From Morinoia aosen (Eukaryota; Arthropoda; Malacostraca; Amphipoda; Talitridae): DNA of 64,000 nucleotides. Position numbers and translations under genes: made by a program. This document shows positions 13,129 through 53,166 of this stretch, one piece after another. Every line of letters starts with the position of its first letter. The first letter of the stretch is position 1. The DNA is taken from assembly GCA_030386875.1 (NCBI GenBank), contig CM059560.1, positions 26,964,183 to 27,028,182 of the forward strand. Reading direction: 5' to 3'. Under the pieces are notes generated by a model, which searched no databases, was not told the DNA's origin, and worked only from the letters and a program-made list of their open reading frames with translations.

Positions 13129-13928
13129 CTAATAACCTTCCATGTTGGCCCGAACTGAAGCTCGTTTCAACTCATCAGTCTTCATCCGTTCTTTAATTGA
13201 TATTTTGAAATTACTGAACTGACTTTTATCAGTTGCTAGTTTTATGTAAATGTGTTTACTCAGTCGTAATTTCCGATTACTCATCATGTAGGAAATGTGC
13301 ATCATCATCATCATGGCGCCGTTCACACATGCCTCTTTAATGCGTCATTTCCCTTGCACCACTTGATTGAGCTTCTACTTCAGTGGATAAATCGTTAGCT
13401 TTCAGTTTAATCACTCATTAGTTCGCATTTCAAAAGTTGGCAACCCAGGTTATTAATATTTGATGAATTATTTTCGAAGTCTCAAATGGGACTATTTTAA
13501 TACAGGATTCCTACGAAGCTGTTCTGTTTGTGTTCGGGCGGTCATTGATGTGATTTGTGGGGTGTGTAAAGAGCTCCTGATGATTCTTATAGGTATTAGA
13601 TTTCATCACTATTTTCTCGGCTAATTTCGTTCCGAGTTATTAGTACGAATTGACTTCGGTTTGCGTTGTTTTAACTATCGTCGAGGCAAAGAATTGGTGC
13701 CTGGTTTTTCTTGTTGCATAGTTTCAATTTTTTACGCGTAATGAAGCATCGGCCAGACCTGGTTTTCCTTGGTTTTGAAATTTTTTTGAATTTTTCATGC
13801 ACGTCTTTGTTACGTGAACCTTCACTTAATCAAAGCATAAATTCACTGGTTTCTAACGTGAAGTGTTTATTTAGAATAAGTTAATAAATGATTCAACTCC
13901 GCATTAAAATTCTTTATTTTAATTTCAG
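13129..13928 (+). other. Intron sequence upstream of the 13.93-kb exon
   Basis: AT-rich, ending in a strong polypyrimidine tract and acceptor (ttattttaatttcag, AG at 13927-13928). This shows that the coding exon beginning at 13929 is not the first exon. The matching donor and upstream exon(s) could not be identified. A short (atc)n run lies near 13303. Confidence 0.55.
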
Positions 13929-13934
13929 GTCGTA

Positions 13935-15035
13935 ATGGTGGCCGAATTTCGTCGAGCGAAACCTCACATGGTCTACGTGAACCTGAGCGACTCGAACACC
14001 AGCGGAGGATCCAACGCAGAGTCACCTGAAGGGTCGCAGCCCTACCGGCCCATCGTCAGAGAGAACATCATTCGCCGCGGCGATAACAACCTGCTAGTTA
14101 AACTGTTGGACGCCGACCCGGAGTTGAGACCAGTGATCATGGGTACCTCTAATCCTAACCAACCTGAACTTTCCCCGTACTCTCATGTGGGGGATTATTC
14201 AAATGATGAGAATTTCAGCGAGCATCGGCCTAATGATGATTTGAATTTTGGAACAGAGGCATCGTTAGCAGCCGGTCGATCTAGTGCCGATTCCACCCAT
14301 GCAGGTGGAGGCAATCGTACCAGCGCTAACAATTCTGCTACCGAACACGGTCGTCAATCAGATGGCTCTTCTTCTCACACCAATACTCCACTAATTAGGC
14401 TAGCTGATTTTTCAAACGTTTCTTCGTTTGGCCATAATGACCGTTCTTTAGTGAACTCTGATCTTCCTCGATACTCCTTCTCTGATCCGATTAGTTCTAA
14501 TTCGTCTTATGGTAATTACAACAGTGGATCGGTGCCCAGAGTAACGATTATACGTTCTACTTCAACTTACGAAGTACAAACTGTCCCAGCAACCGCCTCA
14601 TTCAATAATAATAATGTGCATGGCTTCAGTGTACATGACACTCATGCTGCTGCTAACTTTGGACGCGGTGTTGGAGCTCAAGGAAGCCATAGCTATGGGG
14701 CTGCTCCTCATGCTAACCATGCGCATGGTATGGCTGGGTGGTGTGAGCCTGCCGCGAGTAGTCACTGTGGTCGGAGACCTGGGGGATCAGTAGGGCCTGT
14801 GCGACCAAGATATTCCTCTACTGATGTTTTGTGTACTGATCCTCAGTGTAAGGCGACTAAGTACCTTATGAATCAGGAATCCTTATTGAAGGAAAATCAA
14901 GTGTTGAAAAGGAAGTGCCAAATACTGGCTGGCACCATCAGCGATGAAGAAAAGCTTCAAAAAGTTTTGCGTTGTTTAGCTGATAGAAAGCGTGCGGCAG
15001 CTGCTGCTGCCTCAGTTGCTGCTGCTTGCCCTTAG
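13935..15035 (+). CDS. Unrecognised Ser/Asn/His-rich protein with C-terminal coiled coil (terminal exon)
   Basis: A 366-codon open frame in an exon that starts at 13929 behind a good acceptor. The two codons before the ATG are also in frame, so the methionine may be internal to a longer product. Residues 1-60 are the most conserved-looking part: a VYVNLSDS segment and RPIVRENIIRRGDNNLLVKL. Residues 60-290 are low-complexity Ser/Asn/Gly/His and probably disordered. Residues ~293-350 hold two cysteines (CTDPQC) and then a charged heptad-like helix (LLKENQVLKRKCQIL, then EEKLQKVLRCL). The chain ends in a poly-Ala tract. No enzyme motif, signal peptide or membrane segment is seen. Codon use and length support a real gene, and nothing in the sequence identifies its function. 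A basic-leucine-zipper role is unlikely because no basic region precedes the helix. Confidence 0.78.
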   Translation: MVAEFRRAKPHMVYVNLSDSNTSGGSNAESPEGSQPYRPIVRENIIRRGDNNLLVKLLDADPELRPVIMGTSNPNQPELSPYSHVGDYSNDENFSEHRPNDDLNFGTEASLAAGRSSADSTHAGGGNRTSANNSATEHGRQSDGSSSHTNTPLIRLADFSNVSSFGHNDRSLVNSDLPRYSFSDPISSNSSYGNYNSGSVPRVTIIRSTSTYEVQTVPATASFNNNNVHGFSVHDTHAAANFGRGVGAQGSHSYGAAPHANHAHGMAGWCEPAASSHCGRRPGGSVGPVRPRYSSTDVLCTDPQCKATKYLMNQESLLKENQVLKRKCQILAGTISDEEKLQKVLRCLADRKRAAAAAASVAAACP

Positions 15036-23952: not shown

Positions 23953-24723
23953 TTAAGCTAATGACTCGTCACTATCATGCTGCTGGATGTTAGATAACTC
24001 ACCATCATTTCCAAACTGCATCGCATGGTTACTTAGAGCTCGCGAACAAGAGGGATTTTGGCGATGACTGTTAGAGTTAGCTTCATGGCTAGCCAAAAAT
24101 TCTTCACTCGACCTGTAAGGCCGATGACTATCTGGTGACATTAATGACGAATCATGGGCTTCGTATTCTGGAGGAGATTCAGTAGGGAATGGGGGAGAAA
24201 CAGCTAAGTGCATTTGCTGTTTAGCAGCTCCATTTCTCAAGGATACTCTTCTATCCAAAGAACGATTGGAGTTGAACGTCACACACGATTCCTGTGGTTG
24301 AGTTCTTTGCGGTTTCAACGTTGAAGACCTACACCGTCGAGCGTCGTCCAGGCTATTATTCATTGTACCGAAAGAATTTCCATTAAACGTGACTGTTGGT
24401 TCTGCCATCGGCAACCCAACATTACGTTGGGTGTCTAAATTTGGAGTTGTGGAAAATGATCGAGTGAGGCTGCTTGTGGCGCTTGACAGTGACGACGTCG
24501 GTATGGCATTTGAGGAAGACGCTGTTTTGACGTACGAAGAAGAGCCGGCAATTGCGGGCACGAATTGGGCAGGATGCACTTCTGGGACGATGTTGGTGGC
24601 TTCTTGGGGAGGCCCGTGAGGGAACAGGGCCTCGTATGAAGGAGGATTGTCTTGTTTCCAGACTGACGCCCCAGCGGTGCCAGCTGGCCACGACTGGCCG
24701 GCAGGATTGCACACCACTCGAAC
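23953..24723 (-). CDS. CUB/LDLa gene, exon 8: PPxY-bearing cytoplasmic tail and stop
   Basis: A phase 0 terminal exon of 256 codons plus stop, after the acceptor aaaatatttcag. It contains NPPSYEALF and SPPEYEAHD, two well-spaced WW-binding motifs, with Ser-rich sequence between. It has no catalytic domain and ends DSDESLA. Confidence 0.88.
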   Translation of the reverse strand, partial: VRVVCNPAGQSWPAGTAGASVWKQDNPPSYEALFPHGPPQEATNIVPEVHPAQFVPAIAGSSSYVKTASSSNAIPTSSLSSATSSLTRSFSTTPNLDTQRNVGLPMAEPTVTFNGNSFGTMNNSLDDARRCRSSTLKPQRTQPQESCVTFNSNRSLDRRVSLRNGAAKQQMHLAVSPPFPTESPPEYEAHDSSLMSPDSHRPYRSSEEFLASHEANSNSHRQNPSCSRALSNHAMQFGNDGELSNIQQHDSDESLA

Positions 24724-27700
24724 CTGAAATATTTTGCTTCTTAAAGCTCCCAAAATATTCAAAAATAATTTGAACTTAAACCCCATGGATTTTGAATTAC
24801 CGTGCAGGATTTTTAATAATTTCAATATTCATTAGAAGTATATTTTACAAAACATAACGTAAAATTATAATGGGTCGTGAGTCGGATTTTCAAGCAAATT
24901 ACATCGTTTCAGCTTATGGCAGAAGTTCCTTCGTCGACTTAGCTACGTTTAGTGCTATTTTTTTATGCTCAAAATTCTCAAGTTTTAGCCTTTTCAAAAC
25001 AAATTTGGGCTCAGAGAATGTAGCTACTCTACAGGTCTCCTGAACTTATAAAATTAATATTCAACCTTCGACGCAAAGCTAAGACGTAACCAGAGTGTCA
25101 ACATTTGTAGTGATTTATTTAAAGAAGCATGAAACACGTTCGCTACTCTTTCATTCCTTCCACAAAAAGTGATAGTGTATACAATGGTGCTATATTGTAC
25201 CTGCCGTTATATGTGGGGTGTATAGTACACTGTGAACAATTCAACTGTAACTTTCGAAGCCATTCACGACAGCTTACGCAAATAGAAAATAGTATAGTTA
25301 TAAATGAAAATGCGGGCCAATAAATGCCCACTTAACATTCGTCCATGCCTTGCCATTGTGAAATCTCCAAAGAAAAAAGACGTCCTACATCTACTGTCAC
25401 ACGTTATGGCATATTCGCTCACAATCATCCAACACGACGTAACCGTACTACACTCATACCGCCAATCCAAAAGTATCCAAAGCATTTTACACGTAGCGGT
25501 TTTTCTAGAGATGCTATGGAAGCAATAACAAGGTTCAGAAGCCCTATGTCTGTTCTGTGAGGCCACGTGAGGAGCAGAAACTGTAAAACGTCTCCTCCTG
25601 CATGACAATGTGAGTGACAAAAGCATCTAAATGCCTCACCTGCGTAATTGTCTAACATCTCTTCTGTACGGCCCTGTGAGGAGCAAAAATAACCCGAAGT
25701 CTCACCTGTATGGCTATGTGAGGGGCGGAAGTAACTCACCAGTATGGCCATGTGAGGTACTGAAGTAACTCACTTGTATGGCCATGTGAGGGCAGAAGAA
25801 CCTCACCTGTATGGCCATGTGCGGGGCAGAAGACACGTTGGACGACACCTCGTAGCTCTCAGCGTAAGAGTTGAAGTCCTGAGGCGGGAGCTGTACAGCG
25901 GGGTGCTGGCGCTGCACCTGAGCGCCGGACGCCAGCGCAGCCCGCGTCCTGTTCTTGTAGATGACGGAGGTGAGCACCAGCACCAGCAGCAGCCCCGCCC
26001 CCACCCACGGGCCTGAGGCCACCATCAGCGCCGTGCTCGTGTTCTCTGCAGCATCATAGTGAGATAGATTAGCCCTGAGACAGCCATCAGCGCCGTGCTC
26101 GTTTTCTCTGCAGCATCATAGTGAGATAGATTAGCCCTGTGATCACCAATAACACTATGCTTGTGTATTCTACAAAATATGTAACAAGTGTTGAAAAAAA
26201 AATGACTATGGACAGAGCCTACTGGCATATTTTTGGGTTACCACCAAATTCCCATGCCAATAGCGATCAATAAACCATCAAATAATTCAAAATTTAGGTA
26301 ATTTAGGAATAACAAACAATAAAAGCCTTATTTTAACCGACGGCAAACAAATGAGAAGTTTTTGGTAGAATTGAAATAATTTAATTTCAATCCCGTGTTA
26401 GCTCGTTTTAAAACCGTTGTCCTTAACTATGCTTCTTCCATTTGAAACATAGTCTTGGATGTTATAGTTGCCTCTACACATACAGCGCGGGCAGATGAGC
26501 TGCCTACACACGTAACTGCACCATGCGCTCCGCAAGAAAGTAAACACAAAAGCTTTTTCTACACGACTACCTTCATGAACACCTCCACCGCGTTTCTGCG
26601 GTTGTTACCGGTTGGTTTGGTTAGGTTGTAAGTAGCAAAATAGGGAAATTGACTTTACTGCTCGAATATAATTGTATTTTTCCTAAACAATATGAAAAAT
26701 ACAATTGTACGATGATCCTCGTGATACACTTATTTTTAAAAAAGGTCACGGAACAGATAAAATTATCGTTCATTAATAATAAATGGGAAATTTAACAATT
26801 GGTACACATATAGCCCACTACGCGGAGAATGTGTTAAAAGCTGTCCTGACGCAGGGGAAAATATCAGAGAACACACTGCACTAGTATACACTGAAAACAA
26901 GAATACATTGCACAAAGGATTGCAATATACAAATGGTCAAACTTGACCACAAGTAGACGATGTACGCATTGACATTTCAGCAGAGAATACCTCCGATACA
27001 GCATTGAAAAGGCATTTTATCTGACGTTTCAAAGCTGGGGTTCTCGCTTTGCAATAAGTTGTATTTACATGCTTGAGAAGTTGCGAAGTGGAATCAACAT
27101 ATTTTAAAGCGTTTTCCAACCATAACAATAAAAAATGAGGTTTGGCTTCTTCGTGAGGCGTTATGAAAAACGGTACTTAGACTGGTGTCAACTCAAGTGA
27201 AGTGAGTGTGAATTTTGTGACTCAATGGACAGGCAACGCGTTCATGTCTCTCGGCGTATTTAATACGGCATCAAATTTCTTTGTTTTCATCCAAGAACTT
27301 GGATAATTTCAAAAATTTTGAATTGAAAGACTAGCGACCATTCAGAGCTGTTTCTGACTCGGAACGCAAGATATTTGAATGATATGCTTCATAAATGTAT
27401 CTTCCGGCATTTCGATCATTGGGTTCGACATTCAAATCCAATATAAATACTGACTACTTTTCCACCCCATGTTCCATGTTTCGACCATTATATCATTGTG
27501 TTCTACATCCACAGTAAAATGCAGGTATCGCCCAGTTGTTTCATACCGAATCCCATGCTTCTGTTTTTATCATTAAATCTTACATTCACAATAAAATACA
27601 GATATTGAGCAGTTTTTCGATACCGTGTTCCATGTTCTAGCAGCAATGCTGTTGGGATTGACATTCACAATTAAATTGGGAAATTGAGAAGTAGTTTCAT

Positions 27701-30700
27701 GCCGCTTTCGATGCCTCTGAACTTATATCATTGGTTTCCGCAATCAGAATGTTGATCGGTTGTTTAACACCGTGTTGCATGTTCCAGCATTTGTGTGATT
27801 GAGACCTACATTACAGTTAAGTAGAGATATTGAATAGCTGTTCTATACCGTGGTCCATGCCTTAGTACTAACATCATTGGCTCCACAGTTCCAGCACCGA
27901 GCAGCGCTGCCATACCGTGGTCTATGCCATAGAACTAACATTACTGGCTCCACACTCCCAACACCGAGCAGCGCTGCCATACCGTGGTCCGTGCCTTAGT
28001 ACTAACATCACTGGCTCCACAATCCCAACACCGAGCAGCGCTGCCATACCGTGGTCCGTGCCTTAGTACTAACATCACTGGCTCCACACCCACTCCCAAC
28101 ACCGAGCAGCGCTGCCATACCGTGGTCCATGCCTTAGTACTAACATCACTGGCTCCACACTCACTCCCAACACCGAGCAGCGCTGCCATACCGTGGTGCG
28201 TGCCTTAGTACTAGCATCACTGGCTCCACACTCCCAACACCGAGCAGCGCTGCCATACCGTGGTCCGTGCCTTAGTACTAATATCACTGGCTCCACACTC
28301 CCAACACCGAGCAGCGCTGCCATACCGTGGTCCGTGCCTTAGTACTAACATCACTGGCTCCACACTCCCAACACCGAGCAGCGCTTCCATACCGTGGTCC
28401 GTGCCTTAGTACTAACATCACTGGCTCCACACTCCCAACACCGAGCAGTGCTGCCATACCGTGGTCCATGCAGTTGCGCTCGTCCATGCTGCGCAGGACA
28501 CCGGGCGACGGTCCGCAGTTGACGTGGCCGTCACAGAAGAGCGAGTCGTGCACGCAGTAGGCGTGGTAGCTGTCCCGGCCCTCGTAGCCGCACGACCGCA
28601 GGTCATTGGCGCACTGGTTCACCCCGTCTGGTGTGGTGAGGGAATGGTGGTATGATGGAAAATGGTGGCGTGATGAGGAAATGGTGGTGTTATGGGGGAA
28701 ATGGTGGTGTCATGAAAAAAATGGTGGTGTGATGGGGAAATGGTGGTGTGATGGGGAAATGGTTGTGTGATGGGGAAATGGTGGTGTGGTGGGAAAATGG
28801 TTGTGTGATGGGGAAATGGTAGCGTGATGGGGAAATGGTGGTGTGCTAAGGAAATGGTGGTGTGATGGGGAAATGGTGGTGTGATGGGGAAATGGTGGTG
28901 TGATGGGGAAATGGTAGCGTGATGGGGAAATGGTGGTGTGATGGGGAAATGGTAGCGTGATGGGGAAATGATGGTGTGCTAAGGAAATGGTGGTGTGATG
29001 GGGAAATGGTGGTGTGATGGGGAAATGGTGGTGTGATGGGGAAATTGTGATGTGATGGGGAAATGGTAGCCTGATGGGGAAATGGTGGTGTGATGGGGAA
29101 ATGGTGGTGTGATGGGAAAATGGTAGTGTGATGGGGAAATGGTGGTGTGATGGGGAAATGGTGGTGTGATGGGGAAATGGTGGTGTGATGGGGAAATGGT
29201 GGCGTGATGGGGAAATGGTAGCGTGATGGGGAAATTGTGGCGTGATGAGGAAATGGTGGTGTGATACGGAAATGGTGGTGTATTAAGGGAATGAATGTGT
29301 GATGGGGAAATGGTGGTGTGATGGGGAAATGGAAGCGTGATGGGGAAATAGTGGTGTGCTAAGGAAATGGTGGTGTGATGGGGTAATGGGGGCGTGACGG
29401 GGAAAGGAAATGGTTGTGTGCTAAGGAAATGGTGGTGTGATGGGGAAATGGAAGCGTGATGAGGAAATGGTGGTGTGCTAAGGAAATGGTGGTGTGATGA
29501 AATGGTGGTGTGATGGGGAAATAGAAGCGTGATGGGGAAATGGTGGTGTGCTAAGGAAATGGTGGTGTGATGGGGAAATGGTAGTGTGCTAAGGAAATGG
29601 TAGCGTGATGGGGAAATGGTGGTGTGCTAAGTAAATGGTGGTGTGCTAAGTAAATGGTGGTGTGCTAAGGAAATGGTGGTGTGCTAAGGAAATGGTGGTG
29701 TGCTAAGGAAATAGTGGTGTGCTAAGGAAATTGTAGCGTGATGGGGAAATAGTGGTGTGCTAAGGAAATGGTGGTGTGCTAAGGAAATGGTGGTGTGCTA
29801 AGGAAATGGTAGCGTGATGGGGAAATGGTGGTGTGCTAAGGAAATGGTGGTGTGATGGGGAAATGGTGGTGTGCTGAGGAAATGGTGGTGGGCGAAATGG
29901 AAATGAGGGCGTGATTGGGAAATGGTGGTGTGCTAAGGAAATGGTGGTGTGCTAAGGAAATGGTAGCGTGATGGGGAAATGGTGGTGTGCTAAGAAAATG
30001 GTGGCGTGATATGGAAATGGTGGCGCGATAAGGAAATGGTGGCGTGATAAGGAAATGGTGGCGTGATAAGGAAATGGTGGCATAATAAGGAAATGCTGGT
30101 ATGATGAGGAAATGGTGGCATGATAAGGAAATGATTGTATTATGACGGAATGATGGCATGATATGGAAACATTGGCATTACAAAGAATGCTTGTATTGTA
30201 ATGTAATTGTTTACAAACCGAACACGGACAGCTGCTTAGCATATTCTCGTGTCCGTAATCTTCCGTCTCGACAGAGTAATGATTAATTGATGTTACGATT
30301 CATCTCAACATTTTCTAGAATTTTTGTTTGGTATATTCTAAATTTTCTATAGATGATTCATTATTCTAAATAAAGATTGTTAGAATAATTCGTCAATGTA
30401 CATATTAATTATTTTTCTGTCCCTGATTATTTCTGTCCCCGTAAAATACTTTATGACCATGTTTGTAGGAAACAATTTGTGTATCAAGAACTTTAAGGCC
30501 TAACTAAGTGCTTAAATGCCGCTGCCACTTAGAATGTATAAAGAAATATAAAAAACAACTACTATGTATAACAGAAATATTAACCGGCCTACAAAGTTAT
30601 TCATATTCTCACCTACGTTTTCTTTGCAAGTTCAAGTTGTCTTCACTGGTAGGTTGTCGCTGGGTTCCATGAATTAAAATCAACAATGAAGCTTTGAGCA

Positions 30701-33700
30701 TTAATATTTAAACTCTCGTTCACCACCTACCAGATCTGTTTAATTATTAGAGAGCTTCAAAGATGGAAGAGCGAGAATAGAAAAACTAAACACTAATAAA
30801 AATTTCAATTTTACACACATGAAGAAAGAAGAACGAAGTGGAATTTACTGATATTAAAATATGGTTTTCAAATGGTATTCATTTCGATAGTTTTACAAGA
30901 GAGTAAATGTAAGACGCTCTGCTGCACCATCTGCTAGGTAATCCTCATCACAGAGCGCAAGAATCAATCACGATCTTAATTTAATTTGTGCTTGACCCTG
31001 TAGATTAGAGCTTCATCACAATAATAGCTACAATATCTAAGGCAAGAATGTGTTTTCGTTATGGCTTGCGTGAACTCAGGGAGAAGGAAGATGTTGTAAA
31101 CGCTTGACTTACCTTACATAGATGCACTGCAAAATAAAACAACACCATGAATTTAATAACCAACGTTAAATAACATACTAAGCTCTAGAGTTCAGATAAG
31201 TTTCATTCCAGGGCTAGAAATGTCCAAATAATATTTGTGAGTGGATGAAAATAAGCGATGAGTTGCGAAAGACTTACAGGAAAAGCTGTATGCGGTCACG
31301 ACAAAAGTGAAGCCCTTATGTCTCACGCCTTGCATCTTGTTCCTTGTATTTTGCCACAGATATTGGTCCTTGATTTGCCGTCCAATCTCCACACGCACCG
31401 TCAGCTCTCGCACAGGCTGTGGATGCGAATGAATTTATATTCATCGAATCATAGACAAATTTTGTCACCTAAACCCTCTGTGTAGATTAGATACATCTGA
31501 AATAAAGTTCAGGAAGAGCTAATACAGCTACAAAAGTTTAATGTTACATGCATGCTTTGAGTTTGTCCCACACGCTATCCGTTTTGTTTGAGGTAGCCTA
31601 GCTGATGAAAATTTGACTTTTACAGGCCAATACATGATGAAAATTACCTAAGTTTATCAATCACTAATGCTATAAGTAATTCACGCTGTTATTACCAACA
31701 AATTAAGGCTATTAGCCGCGATCAAAGAGTCGAGGGGCAGCAGAAGTAAATATAATACGTAAAAAAAGAAAATGAAGGGAAAGAAGCTAACATGAACTGA
31801 CCTCACACGGTGCAGAGGCATAAGAGCAGTGGCCTACCAGTGCCTTGCTGTACCCGACGGTGGGCAGGTACTGGCCAGGGTGTACGGACCACGCCCCGCA
31901 CTGCTCCTGGCGGTGTGCGCTCGAGTGGATCTGTTCCGACATCACGGGAATCGTGATCTGCAACGATAATAGTTATGGTGCGCGGCTGATCAATAACTTG
32001 CTCTCGCAGCTGAGCCAAACTGACATGTCGTAGGTACAGTACACCTGCTGATGGTAATACGAGTTTGAAGTGCGCAGAATCCCAATTTTCAATCAATTTA
32101 CGTTGTTATAGCAGTACTGCCAGCAGCGAAAGTTCATAGGTTCTCCACGTGGCGTTTTTCTCATCTGAATTCTCAAGCTTAAGCCAAAAAAATGAGGATT
32201 AGGGCCCGAAAGAATAACATGTAGCGTAGCCTAGTGAACAGAATGGCTTTCGTTGCCATCTGCGCCGCTACAATAGTATAAAGGTGAAAATTCGGTTCTG
32301 TACTACGTAAGGCTAGGTGAAGCGAAATTTTTTGAAAGAGAAAGTTTCTACATGGCTCTGGATTCCTTCTATGTTGCACGCCGTAATTGTGAACTATATT
32401 TCTGTGTGCAAAGATCTGTTTTGTTTTGCAGGCTTGACTGATTCCTTATTCTCCTTTTAGAAGGTGACAAAGGCACAGAGCAAAAGTAAAATATGCTTTT
32501 TCGGACTAGACATGTAGCAGAAATACATGATATTCTTCAAGCAAGTGGGTTGATAGAGCTTGCATACAAATGAATTGTGAGTTTATTTTGTGAGTTTTTA
32601 TCAATTACCAGAGCATAAAAAGTCTACGATGTGCTTCACGTTCTTTGTTTTTTCTACTGAGAAGTCTTAGGCAAAATTTGTACTGAGCGTCACCTACTCT
32701 GTTAACCTTGTAAACCCGAGTTATTACATCAAAAAATCATTTACAAAAATACATGCTACCCTCGAAGCATGTCAAAGCAATAAAATGAAGGAATGGTAAA
32801 GGATTTATGTTGCAAACTCCGAATTTTCGAAATGATGAACATAGTTACATTTTAATACATAAGTAATTCATTGCATCACGTATCAGGCAGACAGTAATGG
32901 CTGGCCAGGTAGGTCACACTCACTGAAATGTAGTCTATGCACACAGACTGAGCGAGGTGATGGCCTAGGTCTTCATACCGCCGTAAGTCGATGCTCTCCA
33001 GCACGCCAAAAAGCCCAGACCCTGTGAGCAAATTTGTGATACTCAACATTGGTCATTTGGCAAAAATATGAAGTACCTTTAAATAGGGTATTATAACCGG
33101 ATAATATAATTTGTCGCCCCTTTTCCAGCACTTATTCAGGATCTGAAGATAGTCAAAAATGAACACGTGGGGAAAAAAGTAACGGTATTTGAATACCTTC
33201 CGTGAGGATAGGCGCTCACAAATAGGGATCACTCAGCGTTGCTGGTGCAGATTTTCGCCAGTGAAATATCAACGCGTACGACAGCTCGACTGAAGTAAGT
33301 TAACTTGGGAGTATAGATGCGAGTTTATTAATCTGATGAATTGAACCCAAAAGACAAGTTTAAGATGCAGAACTGCGTGCGTAATTCAAAGCTCTAGACT
33401 GCATATATTTTTGTTTGGTTCAACTTGAAACACAGCGTATTTGAGAGAAGCTCGATAGGTATTAGGCGCAGTTCAGCTGTATTTAGATAGCTATTCTTTT
33501 GAATTTCACGCGAATAGTAAAACATAACATCGATGTAAAACTATGTAATCCATTTGTTCAATACAGGCTTTGTAAACCGTATCACAAAAATAATGCACAG
33601 CAGACCAACTAAAAATGGGTCTGATGTTGAAAGTTTTATGATCAACGGATGCAGTATTCCTTCAATTGAGTTGAGATCAGCAGCATCCCATACAGTGTGA

Positions 33701-36336
33701 ATGAGCGATGCTCATGCAGACACTTGCATGCGACTTACGGAGAGGTTATCGCGCTTTTAACACGGTTAGTCGATTACCTATAATAATTCTGCTTGAAATT
33801 CCTTCGAATGGCAAGTGAAAAGATGATGAAGGTGTTATTTCGATTGTTTATGATCTCATTTGTTGATTGAAACTCACTTGTTGTTTCAACTGTTCATTGA
33901 TTCAAGAGGATTGTTCTTGATTTAGACCTCATGACACAAATTTGAATATTCCACCATTTAAAAATTAAAATTTCTTTTACCTGCTCATTAAATCATTTCT
34001 ATTCAATAGAAGGAGGGGACGAAATTGCGCAGAAAATATGATCCATGCTATAATTTCACAAATACAGTCGCATATTCATTTTTTTGGCCTCACACGAAAA
34101 TTTTAGGGAGACAAAACTGTTGTCCAGCGTATAAAGGATGATAGGAATATGAATCTTTAATTTCTTCAAACGCCATTCATTATTTCACTTTTTTACAATA
34201 AACATGAGGGTACAAGTAAATGATAATGATTACCAACAAATTACAAATTTCATGATTAACAGTGTCGAAGAAAACTAATATTAACGTAAAGAATAATGAA
34301 ACATTTCGCGAAAAAATTGAACGTTCCTTCGGCAGCGTTGGGTGCAGGCATTTGACTCATTTGAAACGAGTCCACGGGTTTATTGCGTGTGAAAACAAAA
34401 AAAATGAAACTCAATCTTTCGAAAAAAATGATAGATAGGATTATAAATGTACAACTTAACATCAAACTACTGAGACTTCAGTCTGGCTTGATCATTTTTA
34501 AATATGAAGCGCACAGTAAGTTAGTTTGGATGAGAAATAGCTCAAAGAAAACACTAGAAAGAGAAGGACTAGCTAGACTTCAACCCAAGGTTTTCTGTGA
34601 AAACGTACTAATTTCCTCTGGGTTAAAAATTATTTACATATATTTTATCAACGTGTCATAAGAAGCAACAAAAAAATAAAATTACACAAAACCGAACAAC
34701 AAACTAATCTTTCATCAGGCTTGAGTGATCACGTACGTAAACTACCTAAAAGCAATCTCACAAATGCGATGAATACATAATTTTCAAACTCGATGAACTA
34801 AAAATGACTTACCTACGTGGGGAATGAGCACTTCAGAACGTGATAAAAAACCCTGAAGTACGAACGTCACGAAATAATGATAACCTACAAACGCGATGAA
34901 TTACATGTACGAGTATGACGACTTATTTATGATTCCGTACACGCATGTTGAGATGCCTTGAACGTGACGATGCAGAGGCGCGGTGTGTCGTCGTAGTAGG
35001 GACGTGAAGTGAGGCGTAAGATAGCCGCGGAGTTGGGGCCGCGGTTCAGCCAGATGGTGTTGTTGCACACCTTGTCGTCCTCCACGTTGTCTGGGGGCGA
35101 ACGATGTTCGAGATCAGTGTCAATGACTTACGTTCATTTGTTCGAGATCAGTGTCAATGACTTGGGTTCAATTGCGAGATTTTTATTAACCACGATCGAA
35201 TTCCCCACGGGAAATAGATGAATAGTTATAAGAGAAGGTGTGTTAAAATCGATGATAAAATCGAACAAATGCAAAAATACTTCACAGAATGTGTTGAAAT
35301 TCACCTAAATTCGTGAAACTCGAATTCAAAACTGCATTAATGCTTAGTTTTAATTTGAAGTTATATTTTCTGCGCCACAGTACTGTCTAGAAAATATAAG
35401 AAAAAACATAATACTTTGATTACTGGCTTTTGGAAAAATTACTGCAAGAATTCATTAAAGACCAACCAAGCGAAACATTTTCGTTTAAACTTTAAATCAA
35501 CCACTCATAAAGCATAAAGCACAAATCAGGGAACCACAAGTCTTTAGTTTTGTTTAACTTCGAGGAAGAAAATATTTAATTAAAAGGTTTGTAGAAAACG
35601 TGTCTTTACGTACCCTTTAATTTCAGCAAAATTAAAGTATAATGTTAAAATCTTGAATACGCGTCGCCCAACACTTCACGGCGCATCAGACGTGCGTTGG
35701 TAAATAAGGACACTTACGAACCGCAGAGACTGTGGATGACGGTTATCTTTGTAAATATTTACTCGGTAAAATAAAGTGAGTTCTCATTAATACTAGATTT
35801 TCCTCTGGCATTGCAGTTGCCTCCAGCAGGCCCGGAGATGCTCTAGCGACGGAGTAACTCAGAATCAGCAACACAGAAAAAGGCACACTGATCGATGCCG
35901 TTGTAGATAATAAAACACAGCTATTTAAACATTTTTTGCCCTTTTCCTCTTATCTTGATCTGATTATTATTGTTTGTTTTTGAATATGCTGAATAATCCC
36001 GGATCTCTGGATTAAAAACCATTAGCGTCGTATTCTTAACTCTCAAAAGATAAATGGAGCACGCTAAAACCACTTCATATTAATTTGGAAGATGGAAGGC
36101 ATAGCGTGAATTTTTTATCTAGCAAACAACTGCAGATGATAAGAGAAGAATACAAAAAAAATTACATCAAGAACATACGAACACAAATAAGACAAATACA
36201 CCGACATGCAGCTTGCATACCCTCACATACTTTTCCTATCCTAAATTTACTTACAGATTTGATATCCAATACTGTAACGCGATGATGCGGCTACGAAGAC
36301 TGTTGTCCACGCCACGAGGAACCAATTACTTTTCAT
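23953..36336 (-). CDS. Type I membrane protein: signal peptide, CUB-like, LDLa, TM, PPxY tail (8 exons)
   Basis: Coding exons on the minus strand: 36255-36336, 34941-35090, 32924-33021, 31838-31957, 31278-31416, 28460-28627, 25807-26045, 23953-24723. All have GT-AG borders and compatible phases (1,1,0,0,1,1,0), totalling 1,767 nt or 588 residues. Residues 1-~22 form a signal peptide. Residues ~30-196 form a CUB-like region (LCIVTFKA, SVCIDYIS, KGFTFVVTAYSF). An LDLa module has six cysteines at 202, 209, 221, 228, 234 and 249 and the CDGHVNC...DERNC signature. The transmembrane helix is at ~259-281. The 306-residue tail is Ser-rich with PPSY (359-362) and PPEY (516-519). N-glycosylation sequons lie at 37 and 254. 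PPxY motifs bind WW domains of Nedd4-type ligases. LDLRAD3, LDLRAD4 and PMEPA1 pair LDLa-TM with PPxY, while Neto pairs CUB with LDLa. I cannot name an ortholog; ligand and function are unknown. The 34941 donor is the least certain border. Confidence 0.86.
24724..25545 (-). other. Intron 7, non-repetitive part
   Basis: AT-rich intron sequence. Several short frames here are not supported as genes. The part nearer exon 7 is the donor-bearing tandem array described separately. Confidence 0.6.
25546..25820 (-). repeat. Tandem array carrying the exon 7 splice donor (33-36-bp units)
   Basis: Units of about 34 bp repeat the last ~15 bases of exon 7 plus ~20 bases of intron. On the minus strand the sequence CACATGGCCATACAG|GTGAGG recurs with donor borders at 25807, 25774, 25740 and 25706. 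Their sequences are ACAG|GTGAGG, ACAA|GTGAGT, ACTG|GTGAGT and ACAG|GTGAGA. More eroded copies extend to about 25546. Similarity falls with distance from the exon. Confidence 0.9.
25807..26045 (-). CDS. CUB/LDLa gene, exon 7: transmembrane helix and juxtamembrane tail
   Basis: Encodes a short Ser/Thr linker, the helix from ALMVASGPWVGAG through LLLVLVLTSVIY, the stop-transfer KNRTR, and a Tyr-containing stretch (FNSYAESYEV). The acceptor ctgcag and the donor ATACAG|GTGAGG are both tandemly duplicated nearby. Confidence 0.88.
26023..26138 (-). repeat. 62-bp tandem duplication of the exon 7 acceptor
   Basis: The block at 26023-26076 (start of exon 7, acceptor ctgcag and upstream intron) recurs at 26085-26138, 62 bp away, nearly unchanged (one g/t change in the core). 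The second copy therefore contains another intact-looking 3' splice site. Using it would add 62 nt and shift the frame. Confidence 0.92.
26139..27455 (-). other. Intron 6, non-repetitive part
   Basis: AT-rich intron sequence with no supported exon on either strand. Confidence 0.6.
27456..28472 (-). repeat. 67-bp tandem array carrying the exon 6 splice donor
   Basis: On the plus strand the motif gccataccgtggt recurs at 27909, 27976, 28043, 28114, 28185, 28252, 28319, 28386 and 28453, with an earlier copy at 27842. The spacing is 67 bp, with two units of 71 bp. The last copy overlaps the 3' end of exon 6, so each unit contains a near-copy of the last ~12 exonic bases and the donor (GGACCACG|GTATGGC on the minus strand). 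Between 27456 and 27842 the array decays into older, roughly 80-bp units around ataccgtgttccatg-like cores. Confidence 0.95.
28460..28627 (-). CDS. CUB/LDLa gene, exon 6: LDL-receptor class A module
   Basis: The whole six-cysteine LDLa module sits on this exon. The calcium-cage acidic positions are partly altered: CDGHVNC instead of the usual CDG-x-x-DC, with SMDERNC at the end, so calcium binding may be weakened. The donor is CCACG|GTATGGC. Both edges carry tandem repeats, a 67-bp array at the donor and a 19-bp array at the acceptor. Confidence 0.92.
28636..30175 (-). repeat. 19-bp minisatellite, about 80 units, abutting the exon 6 acceptor
   Basis: The plus-strand unit aaatggtggtgtgatgggg varies mainly at two positions, giving types ending gatgggg, gctaagg, and a tagcgtgatgggg form. 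Types are zoned: gatgggg dominates near the exon, gctaagg around 29.6-29.8 kb, and gcgtgataagg at the far end. The array begins about a dozen bases beyond the exon 6 acceptor, whose pyrimidine-rich tract (cattccctcaccacaccag) looks built from the same unit. Confidence 0.95.
30176..31277 (-). other. Intron 5, non-repetitive part
   Basis: AT-rich intron sequence between the minisatellite and exon 5. No exon or repeat is seen. Confidence 0.6.
31278..31416 (-). CDS. CUB/LDLa gene, exon 5: C-terminal strands of CUB-like region
   Basis: Encodes VRELTVRVEIG (the usual L-x-V/I strand) and ends in KGFTFVVTAYSFS, matching the closing GF-x-x-x-Y pattern of CUB domains. The donor T|GTAAGTC is strong, phase 1. 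Confidence 0.86.
31838..31957 (-). CDS. CUB/LDLa gene, exon 4
   Basis: A 40-codon phase 0-0 exon from ITIPVMSEQ to VGYSKAL, with a QCG motif like the QxCG of CUB domains. The acceptor is atcgttgcag and the donor CTG|GTAGGC. Confidence 0.83.
32924..33021 (-). CDS. CUB/LDLa gene, exon 3: CUB-like core
   Basis: Encodes SGLFGVLESIDLRRYED and AQSVCIDYIS, resembling the C-x-D-Y/F strand of CUB domains. The acceptor is ttgctcacag and the donor TCA|GTGAGT is strong. Confidence 0.85.
34941..35090 (-). CDS. CUB/LDLa gene, exon 2: first half of CUB-like region
   Basis: Encodes VCNNTIWLNRG, LRLTSRPYYDDTPR and LCIVTFKA, with two cysteines and one N-glycosylation sequon. The acceptor is gttcgcccccag. The donor chosen (GCGT|GTACGG) is the only nearby GT that gives the phase needed by exon 3. 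A GC donor directly after TTCAAG is another possibility but breaks the frame. Confidence 0.8.
35106..35173 (-). repeat. 34-bp tandem duplication beside the exon 2 acceptor
   Basis: The block gttcgagatcagtgtcaatg occurs at 35106 and 35140, a 34-bp period, with a partial third copy of the unit tail. It starts 16 bp outside the exon 2 acceptor on the intron side. Confidence 0.85.
35174..36254 (-). other. Intron 1 of the CUB/LDLa gene, remainder
   Basis: AT-rich intron sequence. No additional exon is needed because exons 1 and 2 join in phase. Confidence 0.55.
36255..36336 (-). CDS. CUB/LDLa gene, exon 1: start codon and signal peptide
   Basis: The ATG at 36336 opens MKSNWFLVAWTTVFVAASS, a classic hydrophobic leader. 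The exon ends at a strong donor (T|GTAAGTAAA), phase 1. Joining to the next exon gives TAC and an uninterrupted frame. Confidence 0.85.
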
Positions 36337-42829: not shown

Positions 42830-43432
42830 GGGACATACGGATGGAGGAGTCATGGTGGGAACCAGGCACAGGGAGGCAAGGGGAGGGTGGCTCTGGGAAG
42901 TTGAGAGAATTAATGTGTGTAAGGCTTCACTGCTAGGGATGGAGGAGGGGCAGATGGGACCTCTGGGACAATGGTGGGCATGAAGGGAGAGGGAGGAGGA
43001 GAAGTTTGGTGTCGCGCTTGGTTGTGTGAGCTCTGCCAGGCAGCCTGCTTCATCGTTGGCTCAGGCTCGTTGCTGAATCGCAGTTAACAGCGAACGCTTG
43101 CAGTGGCAGGGCGCATTATTGCTCCGCACGTTCGATTGACTTGGCTGTGTATAACCGTCGTCGTACACTAAACGTTGACGATAGTGAAAGCATTTGTCTA
43201 CTCTCAAGTGGCAAAATTCACGTGATTCCCAAGTGCCTATCTACTGCTCTTCGAGCTGCGCGTTACTGTTTAGATAACGTGAAAACTTTTATGAGGCGCG
43301 TGTGAAACCAGTGACATCAACTCGTTGGTGCCAATCCGTACGTGACTCACCATCTGGTCTAATGAATGAACATTTTTGTGACTTCAATTCGAAGTGTACA
43401 TAAGCAGTTCTTCTCTCGTTAACTACACCACC
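42830..43432 (+). promoter_or_regulatory. Nrarp promoter and 5' UTR region
   Basis: A purine-rich, GC-richer block (42.83-43.02 kb) is followed by a TATA-like tataac (43150-43155) and then about 270 bp of leader to the ATG. The exact start site is not determinable. The purine-rich block on the sense strand is a compositional feature shared with the 45.6-kb promoter. Confidence 0.4.
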
Positions 43433-43975
43433 ATGATGAAAGTCACTCGCTCCAATTCAGTTGGATCTGAAGAAGCGCCTTCTTCGCCGGAATCTATTCT
43501 GGATTCATCGCCTCAACCCTCACCGAGTCCTCACACAGATTCTGTGTTTGAGGAAGACCCACCTCAGTATTCACCAGCATTTCGACCGGATGACAAGGAT
43601 GATAAATTCTCTCACTATGACGGGTACCATTCTTCCTCTCCTCAGCCTATCGACTATGATGAAGTAGATGAAACTTTTGGATGCCAAGATGATTTCGTGC
43701 GAGCTGTGCGCAGCGGAGATGCGCGAGACCTCAAGCGAATTCTGACCCGATATTCTCAGCTCATACAAATCAACAGAATGACAACTGACGGCCAAACTGC
43801 TCTCACTCAAAGTTGCTTAGATGGTAACTTAGAGATAGTCAAAGTTCTAATTGCCCATGGAGCCAACCCAGATCAGTCAAACCGAGATGGATTTTTACCG
43901 ATCCATGTAGCATGTTATACAGGTAGAAGTGAGCTCATAAAATTCTTTATGGATTTTGCGAGAAATAGAAGTTAG
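43433..43975 (+). CDS. Nrarp: Notch-regulated ankyrin repeat protein (Nrarp)
   Basis: A single-exon gene of 180 residues. Residues ~84-176 align well from memory with vertebrate Nrarp: an FVRAVRSGD helix, then GQTALTQSCLDGNLEIVKVL (vertebrate GQTALHQSVIDGNLELVKLL), then NRDGFLPIHVACYTGRSELI (vertebrate NRDGWSALHIAAFGGHQDIV). These form the small ankyrin block that binds the Notch intracellular domain-CSL complex and promotes Notch turnover. The ATG at 43433 sits in a strong context (accaccATGATG); a GTG 39 nt upstream is in frame but not a plausible start. Residues 1-83 are an acidic, Ser/Pro-rich extension with a PPQY motif (43-46). It has no counterpart in the roughly 114-residue vertebrate protein. 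It acts in the nucleus as Notch feedback, by family knowledge. Confidence 0.93.
   Translation: MMKVTRSNSVGSEEAPSSPESILDSSPQPSPSPHTDSVFEEDPPQYSPAFRPDDKDDKFSHYDGYHSSSPQPIDYDEVDETFGCQDDFVRAVRSGDARDLKRILTRYSQLIQINRMTTDGQTALTQSCLDGNLEIVKVLIAHGANPDQSNRDGFLPIHVACYTGRSELIKFFMDFARNRS

Positions 43976-47468: not shown

Positions 47469-47517
<49 letters not shown>
47469..47517. repeat. (TA)n microsatellite
   Basis: An uninterrupted TA dinucleotide run of about 24 units. Confidence 0.98.
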
Positions 47518-51101: not shown

Positions 51102-53079
51102 GAGCAGCTATCTCACGCGGGCCCCTCGTGTACAGTAAGCTGCTGCAAAACCCGTTAAAAACACATTGGAGGATGAACATTTGCCCAAACTAGCCAGACG
51201 CAAAACTTCGCCCTCTTAAATTTACCGCTGCATCATGTGCTGTAGTATCACCTGCTGCACAAATTCAAAATTGACACTGCTCGCACAACAAAAAATAAAT
51301 AGAATTGCTTAGCTAGGTATGCAGCTCGCATCTGTCTATACCGCCCAATCGAGTTCAGATGAACTGTGTAAGGCTGAAAATTTACTTATCATGGTAAAAA
51401 ATTTGCCAATAAACACCAATTTGCCCAAATTTTCAGCAAAGTAAAGTAAACAGATTTAATCGAGATGTTAGAGACCGAATTAAGGCGACAAGAGGCTTCC
51501 TGTATAGACAGACTATGAGGCCCAGTATATGGAGTGAGAGCGCCGTTATCTGGCATATCAGCAATGAGAGATCAAGTACCCCACCGTGTACAAAAAATAA
51601 AAGCTTCCATCGATAAACTTTTATCTGTATTGAAACTACTCTTCTCTCTGAATGAGTTGGTCTCCTCGACATGGCTAAGTTTAAACTTTAATATAATTCA
51701 CAGGATATCAAATGCACTTACCTTTCTCGACGGAATATTGAAACTTCGCACAACTAATATTGCAACATGCTATTCTGCGCAATTTACACATGGGTAAATT
51801 CTAGTGTCAAGGCGTTTAAAATTCATTGTAGTATTACGCTTACTTTAACTGAGAAAGGCACCCTAAAAACTCGATTCTAATCCCACGTCGCGAGCTTCTT
51901 ACCGAAAAGGTATCTAGTTTGTCTAGGGAGAGAGTTTATTCCTTATCGTCTAGACACTTTTTTTTATTGGCCGGAAGTACTAGTGTATCTAATTCATGAA
52001 AAATAGGTGAACATATTCAACCCAGCCCCAAGGCATGTGTTGCGTGAGAAGGTTGGCTCGCCGGTGACCAGCGTAAAACCAAGCCCCGAGTTTTTAATCG
52101 TAGATTGCATGGTCACGATAAGACATCAGCGATCACTTCAAGTGTTCTCTTCTGTATGAGCATAATAGTTTGCTCCTTAGAAGGACTCGCATGAGTGGCC
52201 TCCTGATAAGATGTCTTCAGAGGCCATTGTCACGGAGGTGTATTGGTTGTTCTTCTGACTCCTTTCATGATTGTCTTATTCCTGTGCTGTTTATGAGGTC
52301 ATCAGATGCAAGATTAAGCGTTCTTAGAACTGATATATCTTCCACTGATGTTACCCGTACATTCGCTTCGAGGTGGTTTTCGTTTACTTTAATACTTTTG
52401 AAATTTAATTAAATATTTCCAATCTCTCGTGTTGCTGAATCGTAGAGAACGGCACTAATTATTAAGGTAATCTTGAAATAGTTTTTGATGAAGAAATTCC
52501 GGCTCAGATGAAATTTTTTATCTTTATGGAAAGGGATACGTCAGTTTGGCACAAAAAACAGAATGACACAAAAAGTAAAGGAGAGCTAATAAGATACACT
52601 TTTGTAAAATTTAAAGCGTTTCTAAGAAAACTTTGAACGATATATTGCAGTACAAAGATGACTGTAGGCAATACAGCTTTCTAGCTGATACTCGGGACAG
52701 TTTAAGATCTAAAACAACAGCATCACTTCTAATTTAGGCTATCATCAATTGCCTCATTCAATTTCATTCCACAAAACAATCAACTTTTTTGTAACAGTTC
52801 AAGGTACAACTATGCATAACTCAAAATACAACCATTTCACCAAGTTGTGCAAGCACCCATGAAAGTCCCTCAACCCTCATAACCATTATATCAACTTACA
52901 AGTTACATTCACTTCAAACAACACTATCATGTCTAGCTCTTCTTTGCGTCACGGAAACACTTAACGTTGTCACCATTTTGATTCACTTTCATTCCCGTCT
53001 GTAGTTCCCTGCAGCAGCACGAGACTAGAGCTGATTTTTGAAGCGTTTCTAAAAGCATCCGTAGATGCCTTCATTATAA
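51102..53079. other. Gene-poor stretch, nothing supported
   Basis: Slightly GC-richer patches near 52.0-52.4 kb carry an 80-codon plus-strand frame with no recognisable domain. Nothing is supported. Confidence 0.4.
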
Positions 53080-53166
53080 TTATTATTATTACTATTATTA
53101 TTATTATTATTTGTATTATTATTATTATTTTTATTATTATGATTATTATTATTATTATTATTATTA
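53080..53166. repeat. (TTA)n microsatellite, imperfect
   Basis: An imperfect TTA/ATT trinucleotide run with occasional substitutions. Confidence 0.95.

What the first reader, a model, noticed from the sequence alone, without database searches (positions are those of the whole stretch)
25546..35173. Tandem repeats sit on exon edges throughout one gene
Seen: in the same gene, the donors of exons 6 and 7 are tandemly multiplied, the acceptor of exon 7 is duplicated, a 34-bp duplication begins 16 bp from the acceptor of exon 2, and a 1.5-kb minisatellite begins about a dozen bases from the acceptor of exon 6. Unit lengths (19, 34, ~34, 62, 67 bp) and sequences are unrelated, so this is not one repeat spreading. 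Tandem duplication of AGGT-containing segments is a proposed route of intron gain. Here splice-site segments look like preferred duplication points. The window has too few introns to show whether this is gene-specific or genome-wide. I know of no described system of this kind.
Basis: partly seen in the sequence, partly recalled or inferred. Interest (0 to 1): 0.85.

Follow-up and report, generated by a model that had tools for sequence, protein, structure and literature searches.

The report
Minisatellites crowding exon edges genome-wide
In this arthropod-like genome, short repeated DNA blocks often sit right against the ends of gene segments and sometimes copy the splicing signal itself many times over, a pattern described before in amphioxus that could help show how genes change their structure.

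Summary
Five tandem arrays (34, 62, 67, 19, 34 bp units) lie 1-14 bp from exon edges of one minus-strand gene; none of 100,000 random placements in its introns put even four that close. Three include exon bases plus the splice site.

It is not gene-specific. Of 190 predicted splice edges (108 exon loci), 30 have an array boundary within 60 bp, about three times background, and a second set of 60 loci repeats it. Junction-spanning duplications are clear at 7 of 190 edges, plausible at 2; one has about 26 copies of exon end plus perfect donor, another two versus three copies in two near-identical loci.

Directed duplication of splice sites is possible but not shown: repeat coverage does not clearly rise towards exons, edge arrays are not GC-rich, and few-copy duplications are only uncertainly enriched. 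Best reading: tandem duplication strikes everywhere, a junction-spanning one is silent because the exon-proximal signal still works, and arrays run up to exons and stop.

The kind is known: amphioxus "mirages". New are the host with arthropod-type telomeres and the genome-scale counts.

The parts
23953..24723 (-). Exon 8 (cytoplasmic tail), acceptor at 24723; no array at its acceptor
   Evidence: splice frame; ORF 23953-24828
25807..26045 (-). Exon 7 (transmembrane segment by eye)
25701..25832 (-). 34-bp x3.9 array spanning the exon 7 donor; about 26 exonic bases; further donor-like copy at +167 (about 25640)
   Evidence: TRF; donor scores
26022..26139 (-). 62-bp x1.9 duplication spanning the exon 7 acceptor; using the outer copy would run into a stop
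   Evidence: TRF; translations; acceptor at -62
27845..28471 (-). 67-bp x9.2 array spanning the exon 6 donor (about 11 exonic bases); nine equal-scoring donors
   Evidence: TRF; 4 genome matches, all here
28460..28627 (-). Exon 6 (cysteine-rich, weakly LDL-receptor-A-like, E 0.35, below Pfam cut-off)
   Evidence: its peptide has a single match in the genome
28629..30133 (-). 19-bp x79 minisatellite abutting the exon 6 acceptor and supplying its pyrimidine-rich tract (71% pyrimidine); 24 AG counting the real acceptor, none of the others within 217 bp of it
   Evidence: TRF
31278..31416 (-). Exon 5, no array at its edges
31802..31957 (-). Exon 4, no array at its edges
32924..33021 (-). Exon 3, no array at its edges
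34950..35090 (-). Exon 2 (donor end uncertain)
   Evidence: sequence and translation
35105..35174 (-). 34-bp x2.1 duplication, 14 bp upstream of the exon 2 acceptor; no exon bases
   Evidence: TRF; distance

Best explanation
These are mirage-type exon-edge minisatellites in a genome rich in minisatellites (10-20% of most stretches sampled). Step 1 (inferred): short tandem duplications of roughly 20-120 bp arise at random in all DNA. Step 2 (anatomy shown, splicing inferred): a duplication inside an exon would usually break the frame and be lost, but one that straddles a splice junction is silent, because the spliceosome can keep using the exon-proximal signal (first donor, last acceptor) and the extra exon piece plus extra splice site becomes intron. 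Step 3 (shown in near-identical locus copies): arrays gain and lose units. Step 4 (inferred): arrays persist or spread until they meet the minimal splice signal, where purifying selection stops them, so their boundaries pile up 0-60 bp from exons while the amount of repeat DNA stays about level. The gene in this window is a dense example of a genome-wide pattern.
For: Genome sample: an array boundary within 60 bp of a splice edge in 30 of 190 flanks, 1.30/kb against 0.38/kb at 101-380 bp; first set 1.50 vs 0.32, second set 1.17 vs 0.41. Counting best non-overlapping arrays: ratio 2.9 (cluster bootstrap 1.9-4.5), many-copy arrays 16 near vs 4 far, 9.3 (3.5-21.7), 24 of 91 gene clusters (the bootstrap adds a small constant to the denominator). 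Coverage about level: 12-15% at 21-390 bp, 10-14% at 391-1490 bp, 19.8% in 20 random 1050-bp regions. Exon-end 40-mers recur in their own intron flank at 12 of 190 edges, exon middles at 0 of 190, other loci's flanks 0.00 expected; like-for-like rate at non-coding positions 1.6-3.6%. Spacer between array and exon is array-like in 6 of 19 spacers tested, so some arrays reach closer than TRF says. L106/L125: unit of 38 exon bp + donor, two vs three copies; L064/L122 2.6 vs 4.6 and L093/L123 at least 11.7 vs 4.1 copies. L054: about 26 copies of 39 exon bp + CAG|GTGAGT.
Against: No transcript was available; use of the exon-proximal signal is inferred from reading frame. Step 4 was not observed: only 4 of 25 near arrays share sequence with the adjoining exon end, one of them (L035) at a doubtful edge, so most edge arrays lie beside the junction, and random seeding alone does not explain why many-copy arrays gather there. 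Few-copy duplications are more frequent at edges than at 101-380 bp (0.39 vs 0.15/kb; 0.32 vs 0.05/kb in the first set) and random regions had none, though not much above 401-1400 bp (0.23/kb); the raw junction-spanning rate, 6.3%, exceeds 1.6-3.6% elsewhere. A moderate preference for duplication at junctions is therefore open. Outside the gene the window itself is under 1% array. I-set exons (10 flanks) showed none.
Confidence: 0.55

Rival explanations
1. Directed duplication: splice junctions or the exon-intron step (transcription, R-loops, nucleosome edge, spliceosome-linked breaks) are mutational hot spots for tandem duplication.
For: Boundary density is highest at 0-30 bp (15 arrays in 190 flanks); raw junction-spanning rate 6.3% against 1.6-3.6% elsewhere; few-copy duplications 0.39 vs 0.15/kb at 101-380 bp, and none in 20 random regions.
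Against: After leaving out three hits at edges judged misplaced by eye, 9 of 190 (4.7%) against 3.6% in far flanks; few-copy duplications 0.32 vs 0.23/kb at 401-1400 bp; the few-copy ratio's interval includes 1; exonic share of units varies from about 11 of 67 to 39 of 59 bp; coverage not clearly raised.
Confidence: 0.26
2. GC-driven: tandem duplication prefers GC-rich DNA; exons are GC islands in AT-rich introns and selection removes the exonic arrays, leaving the edges.
For: Exon matches 53% GC, first 21 intron bases 46%, further intron 38-41%; the window stretch 28-30 kb with two arrays is 52.5% GC.
Against: Edge arrays are GC 0.417 against 0.380 for far arrays (p 0.19) and exceed their flanks in only 3 of 29 cases (those flanks include exon); far arrays exceed theirs in 23 of 68.
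Confidence: 0.05
3. Intron birth: the introns themselves arose by tandem duplication of AGGT-containing exon segments, and the arrays are the remains of that origin.
For: Units hold exon tail plus donor (L054, L106); tandem genomic duplication is an accepted route of intron gain (PMC3443670, passages).
Against: In the window, introns 5-6 and 6-7 hold more than 1 kb of non-array DNA beside the arrays; no outgroup could be tested.
Confidence: 0.07
4. Assembly artefact, for example false tandem copies or merged haplotypes.
For: Many near-identical hits lie within a few Mb of each other on the same contig, so haplotypes may be incompletely separated.
Against: Units within arrays differ from one another (79-98% matches), edge arrays occur in 24 of 91 gene clusters, and copies of one locus agree on array position while differing in array length.
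Confidence: 0.03
5. The arrays regulate splicing and are kept by selection for that.
For: The 19-bp array supplies the exon 6 pyrimidine tract and has no AG in the 217 bp before the real one although 23 others occur in the array. An intronic minisatellite is linked to alternative splicing in C. elegans (PMC4039745, passages).
Against: Units look different at each locus (by eye), and array lengths differ between near-identical copies.
Confidence: 0.04

Closest known systems
'Mirage' minisatellites of amphioxus (Adh3, globins BflGb6 and BflGb9, TnC, PGBD5); PMC3087553 and PMC3902484, passages read; the original Adh paper (Nucl Acids Res 2002, 30:2871, PMC117041) is not held and is known to me only through these
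   Same: Tandem repeats span an exon-intron boundary on the donor or acceptor side; units vary by locus (10 to 160 bp there; 34 to 107 bp for most of the spanning arrays here); many copies carry AG/GT signals; unit number differs between haplotypes there (6 vs 3) and between near-identical locus copies here (two vs three).
   Different: The host has arthropod-type TTAGG arrays; shown here in a genome sample with a background control, together with a larger class of arrays that abut exons without including exon sequence. There RT-PCR is said to support normal splicing; here splicing is inferred.
Intron gain by tandem genomic duplication of AGGT segments (PMC3443670, passages; PMC4974935, abstract start in a listing)
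   Same: Short tandem duplication that copies splice-like signals inside a gene.
   Different: Here existing junctions are multiplied and existing introns lengthened; no new intron was demonstrated.
Repeat-filled first intron of earthworm metallothionein genes (PMC12783039, passages)
   Same: Minisatellite monomers (25-216 bp) inside an intron of an invertebrate gene; duplicated fourth exon absent from the final transcript.
   Different: One gene family; the passages read do not describe arrays pinned to splice sites.

Membership tests
Mirage minisatellites (amphioxus type) | Tandem repeat unit spans an exon-intron boundary | tested here: met
   Exon 6 donor, exon 7 donor, exon 7 acceptor in the window; elsewhere L054, L064, L106/L125, L087, L047, L105, L116. 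Not met for the exon 6 and exon 2 acceptor arrays, which only abut.
Mirage minisatellites (amphioxus type) | Unit is private to its locus | tested here: inconclusive
   67-bp unit: 4 matches, all in this array. The other four units were not searched.
Mirage minisatellites (amphioxus type) | Copy number varies between alleles | tested here: inconclusive
   Five pairs of near-identical locus copies compared; each pair differs in the length of at least one array, while the 117-bp array of L106/L125 is the same. Whether they are alleles or duplicates is unknown; the exon 6 peptide of the window gene has one match only.
Mirage minisatellites (amphioxus type) | Normal mRNA despite decoy splice sites | not testable with these tools
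   No transcripts; exons 3-8 are in frame with the exon-proximal sites.
Intron gain by tandem duplication | A new intron absent in relatives, bounded by the duplicated AGGT | not testable with these tools
   The genome search tool states that no relatives are held.

The most novel reading that the evidence does not exclude
Exon edges in this lineage are hot spots where tandem duplications preferentially arise or mature into long arrays, through a process tied to transcription or splicing, so that splice junctions are continually copied and the genome keeps a standing supply of duplicate splice sites from which introns can slide, lengthen or be born.
Probability: 0.3. Interest if true: 0.8.

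Novelty: new member of a known kind. Interest (0 to 1): 0.55.

Why it matters
In the passages read, mirages were reported gene by gene in amphioxus and thought possibly general in cephalochordates. Finding them across a genome with arthropod-type telomere arrays, with changing copy numbers, would make them a general outcome of minisatellite-rich genomes. It gives a natural system for asking how the spliceosome ignores dozens of perfect decoy sites and how often junction duplication leads to intron gain or sliding. With about one sampled splice edge in six having an array close by, it is also a hazard for gene prediction and short-read assembly in such genomes.

Tried and rejected
Chance or a peculiarity of one gene: rejected by the second, separately chosen set of 60 loci. 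GC-rich seeding: not supported. One repeat family spreading: the 67-bp unit matches only this array. More repeat DNA near exons: suspected from the window, where the gene stretch is 22% array and the rest under 1%, but 20 random regions are 19.8% array, so the pile-up is of boundaries, not of amount. Idea that abutting arrays are worn-down junction-spanning ones: only 4 of 25 share sequence with the exon end. Naming the gene: no Pfam match over cut-off and nothing convincing in the PDB. Rfam (gathering cut-off) and tRNA scans of the window were empty.

Rows dropped before counting: L001 (the window itself) and nine of L002-L061 (L009, L013, L016, L057, L058, L060 as near-duplicates or, for L057, sharing a repeat with L041; L045, L048 for a long open frame; L014 with three stops); edges with a splice score under 3 (25 of 102 in the first set, 7 of 120 in the second). 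Kept although their match holds one stop: L019 and L024, both with a near array. Kept neighbouring exons of one gene share flank DNA in several pairs, so some far arrays count twice, which works against the enrichment. The second set (40 kinase, 12 PDZ, 3 CUB, 5 I-set) was hand-picked from hit tables that carry no repeat information. A first edge analysis took minus-strand hits in the wrong orientation; found, redone; one search is not used. Of the 12 hits, L071, L033 and L035 were judged misplaced edges by eye, the last two without a further check. When checking this report I found that I had left out the few-copy figures that favour directed duplication; they are now given, and I lowered the best explanation from 0.60 to 0.55, raised directed duplication from 0.22 to 0.26 and the novel case from 0.27 to 0.30, and trimmed the GC rival from 0.06 to 0.05.

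Literature searches for such structures; no listed title or abstract start names an arthropod case of repeats at exon edges. The library holds only open-licence papers.

Full report
Exact runs of five TTAGG units match 6970 times on one strand and 8901 on the other; the capped list shows a long run near the start of contig C2 and internal runs on C1. TTAGG as the usual arthropod telomere repeat is recalled, not tested. The gene in question runs on the minus strand. It looks like a single-pass membrane protein with a cysteine-rich region that resembles an LDL-receptor A module only weakly (E 0.35, below cut-off) and a long tail; no family could be named.

Exons 3 to 8 joined at the proposed sites read as one frame, good evidence for the exon edges; exon 2 has an uncertain donor. 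Distances from array to exon edge, counting only the intron part of spanning arrays, are 1, 1, 1, 2 and 14 bp; random placement of arrays of these lengths in the gene's introns put three within 17 bp in 14 of 100,000 trials and four or five in none. Three arrays contain exon bases and a splice site (exon 6 donor, exon 7 donor, exon 7 acceptor); the other two only abut an acceptor. The used exon 7 acceptor should be the exon-proximal one, since reading from the outer copy meets a stop.

To ask whether this is one gene or the genome, I took exons found by Pfam profiles, which know nothing of repeats: kinase and LDL-receptor A hits with 1500-bp flanks (51 of 60 loci kept), then a second set of 60 kinase, PDZ, CUB and I-set exons with 400-bp flanks. 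Splice edges were predicted by simple weight tables and open frame; 190 of 222 edges, in 108 loci, passed. Array boundaries within 60 bp of an edge: first set 14 arrays in 77 flanks (1.50/kb against 0.32/kb at 101-380 bp), second set 16 in 113 flanks (1.17 against 0.41/kb), together 30 of 190 flanks; with profile ends instead of predicted splice sites, 31 arrays in 222 flanks, 1.15 against 0.31/kb. Counting only the best non-overlapping arrays gives 28 near, ratio 2.9 with a gene-cluster bootstrap of 1.9-4.5; arrays scoring at least 100 give 5.6 (2.6-10.6); 24 of 91 clusters are involved. By family, near against far per kb: kinase 1.01 vs 0.47, LDL-receptor 1.58 vs 0.46, PDZ 1.97 vs 0.34; CUB has one near array in 6 flanks and I-set none in 10.

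The amount of repeat does not clearly rise towards exons. Coverage is 6% in the first 21 intron bases, 12-15% from 21 to 390 bp, 10-14% from 391 to 1490 bp, and 19.8% in 20 random regions, while the window outside the gene is under 1%. So arrays are widespread, and what is special at exons is that they run up to the splice signal and stop. If arrays were simply dropped at random into introns without touching exons, coverage should fall off near exons (my reasoning, not simulated); it does not, so arrays start at exon edges more often than that simple picture allows. The excess is clearest in many-copy arrays: first set 7 near (0.75/kb) against 3 at 101-380 bp (0.14/kb), 9 at 401-1400 bp (0.12/kb) and 0.17/kb in random regions; both sets 16 near and 4 far. 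For few-copy duplications the first set has 3 near (0.32/kb), 1 at 101-380 bp (0.05/kb), 18 at 401-1400 bp (0.23/kb) and random regions none; both sets 9 near and 8 far, ratio 2.6 (0.8-6.9). I read this as persistence or growth of arrays against a selective wall more than as more founding events, but the few-copy numbers are small and do not exclude the latter.

Junction-spanning duplications were sought directly by aligning the last or first 40 exon bases with the adjoining 390 bp of intron. At score 28 or more, 12 of 190 edges hit, exon middles 0 of 190, mismatched loci 0.00 expected. By eye, seven are clear (L054, L106 donor, L064, L087, L047, L105, L116), two plausible (L106 acceptor, L039), and three look like misplaced edges. 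The same test at non-coding positions lying in an array's terminal unit gives 2.5% (random), 3.6% (far flanks) and 1.6% (window outside genes) against 6.3% raw at edges (sampled positions overlap and are not independent), so junctions are duplicated at roughly one to four times the rate of ordinary DNA. Of 25 arrays within -5 to 60 bp of an edge, 4 share sequence with the exon end above all 80 control exons, and 6 of 19 tested spacers look like the array. Edge arrays are not GC-rich.

L054 is the extreme: an LDL-receptor A exon whose last 39 bases plus CAG|GTGAGT and further intron bases form a 59-bp unit in 25.9 copies to the end of the fetched stretch. L106 and L125 are near-identical copies of a PDZ exon 0.8 Mb apart; the unit of 38 exon bases, donor and about 28 intron bases is present twice in one and three times in the other, and in both the copy deepest in the intron has lost the donor. 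The four other pairs also differ in array length, though some arrays there are cut by the fetched stretch. Whether the pairs are alleles or duplicates is unknown.

This is a known kind. In amphioxus, tandem repeats spanning exon-intron boundaries are called mirages; passages of PMC3087553 describe them in globin genes and cite Adh3, with 6 versus 3 units in two haplotypes, splice signals in many copies, RT-PCR said to show normal splicing, and a proposal that they create introns; passages of PMC3902484 add PGBD5 and cite TnC. My searches listed no arthropod case. I therefore file the three junction-spanning arrays as mirage-type, the two abutting ones as minisatellites pinned at an acceptor, and the genome-wide pile-up as the new part.

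Noticed in passing
G000 contigs, e.g. C4:94.83/95.73 Mb, C2:33.43/37.47 Mb, C15:68.9/69.8 Mb, C17:70.0/72.1 Mb: Many near-identical hits lie within a few Mb on one contig (97.6% over 3.9 kb for L012/L013, 98.5% over 3.8 kb for L015/L016): retained haplotypes or recent large duplications.
   Followed up: partly
window 28629-30133: The 19-bp array holds 24 AG counting the real acceptor, with 17 CCTTAGCAC acceptor-like units, but no AG in the 217 bp before the real exon 6 acceptor: a possible AG exclusion zone, not tested against chance.
   Followed up: partly
random regions L127-L146: Four of 20 random 1050-bp regions are more than half minisatellite (main periods 32-40 bp); the genome seems unusually minisatellite-rich.
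   Followed up: partly
L071 (G000:C15:49700394-49701430): A kinase exon appears by eye to end in a GC donor (CAG|GCAAGT), with a 41-bp duplication starting about a dozen bases later.
   Followed up: no
window 43382-43975: Open frame with ankyrin repeats (Ank_4 E 4.7e-13), by recall like the Notch-regulated ankyrin protein NRARP.
   Followed up: no
window 13923-15035: 370-codon open frame, rich in serine and asparagine by eye, no Pfam match up to E 1.
   Followed up: no
window 47469-47517 and 53073-53166: (TA)24.5 without a mismatch and an (ATT)31 microsatellite.
   Followed up: no
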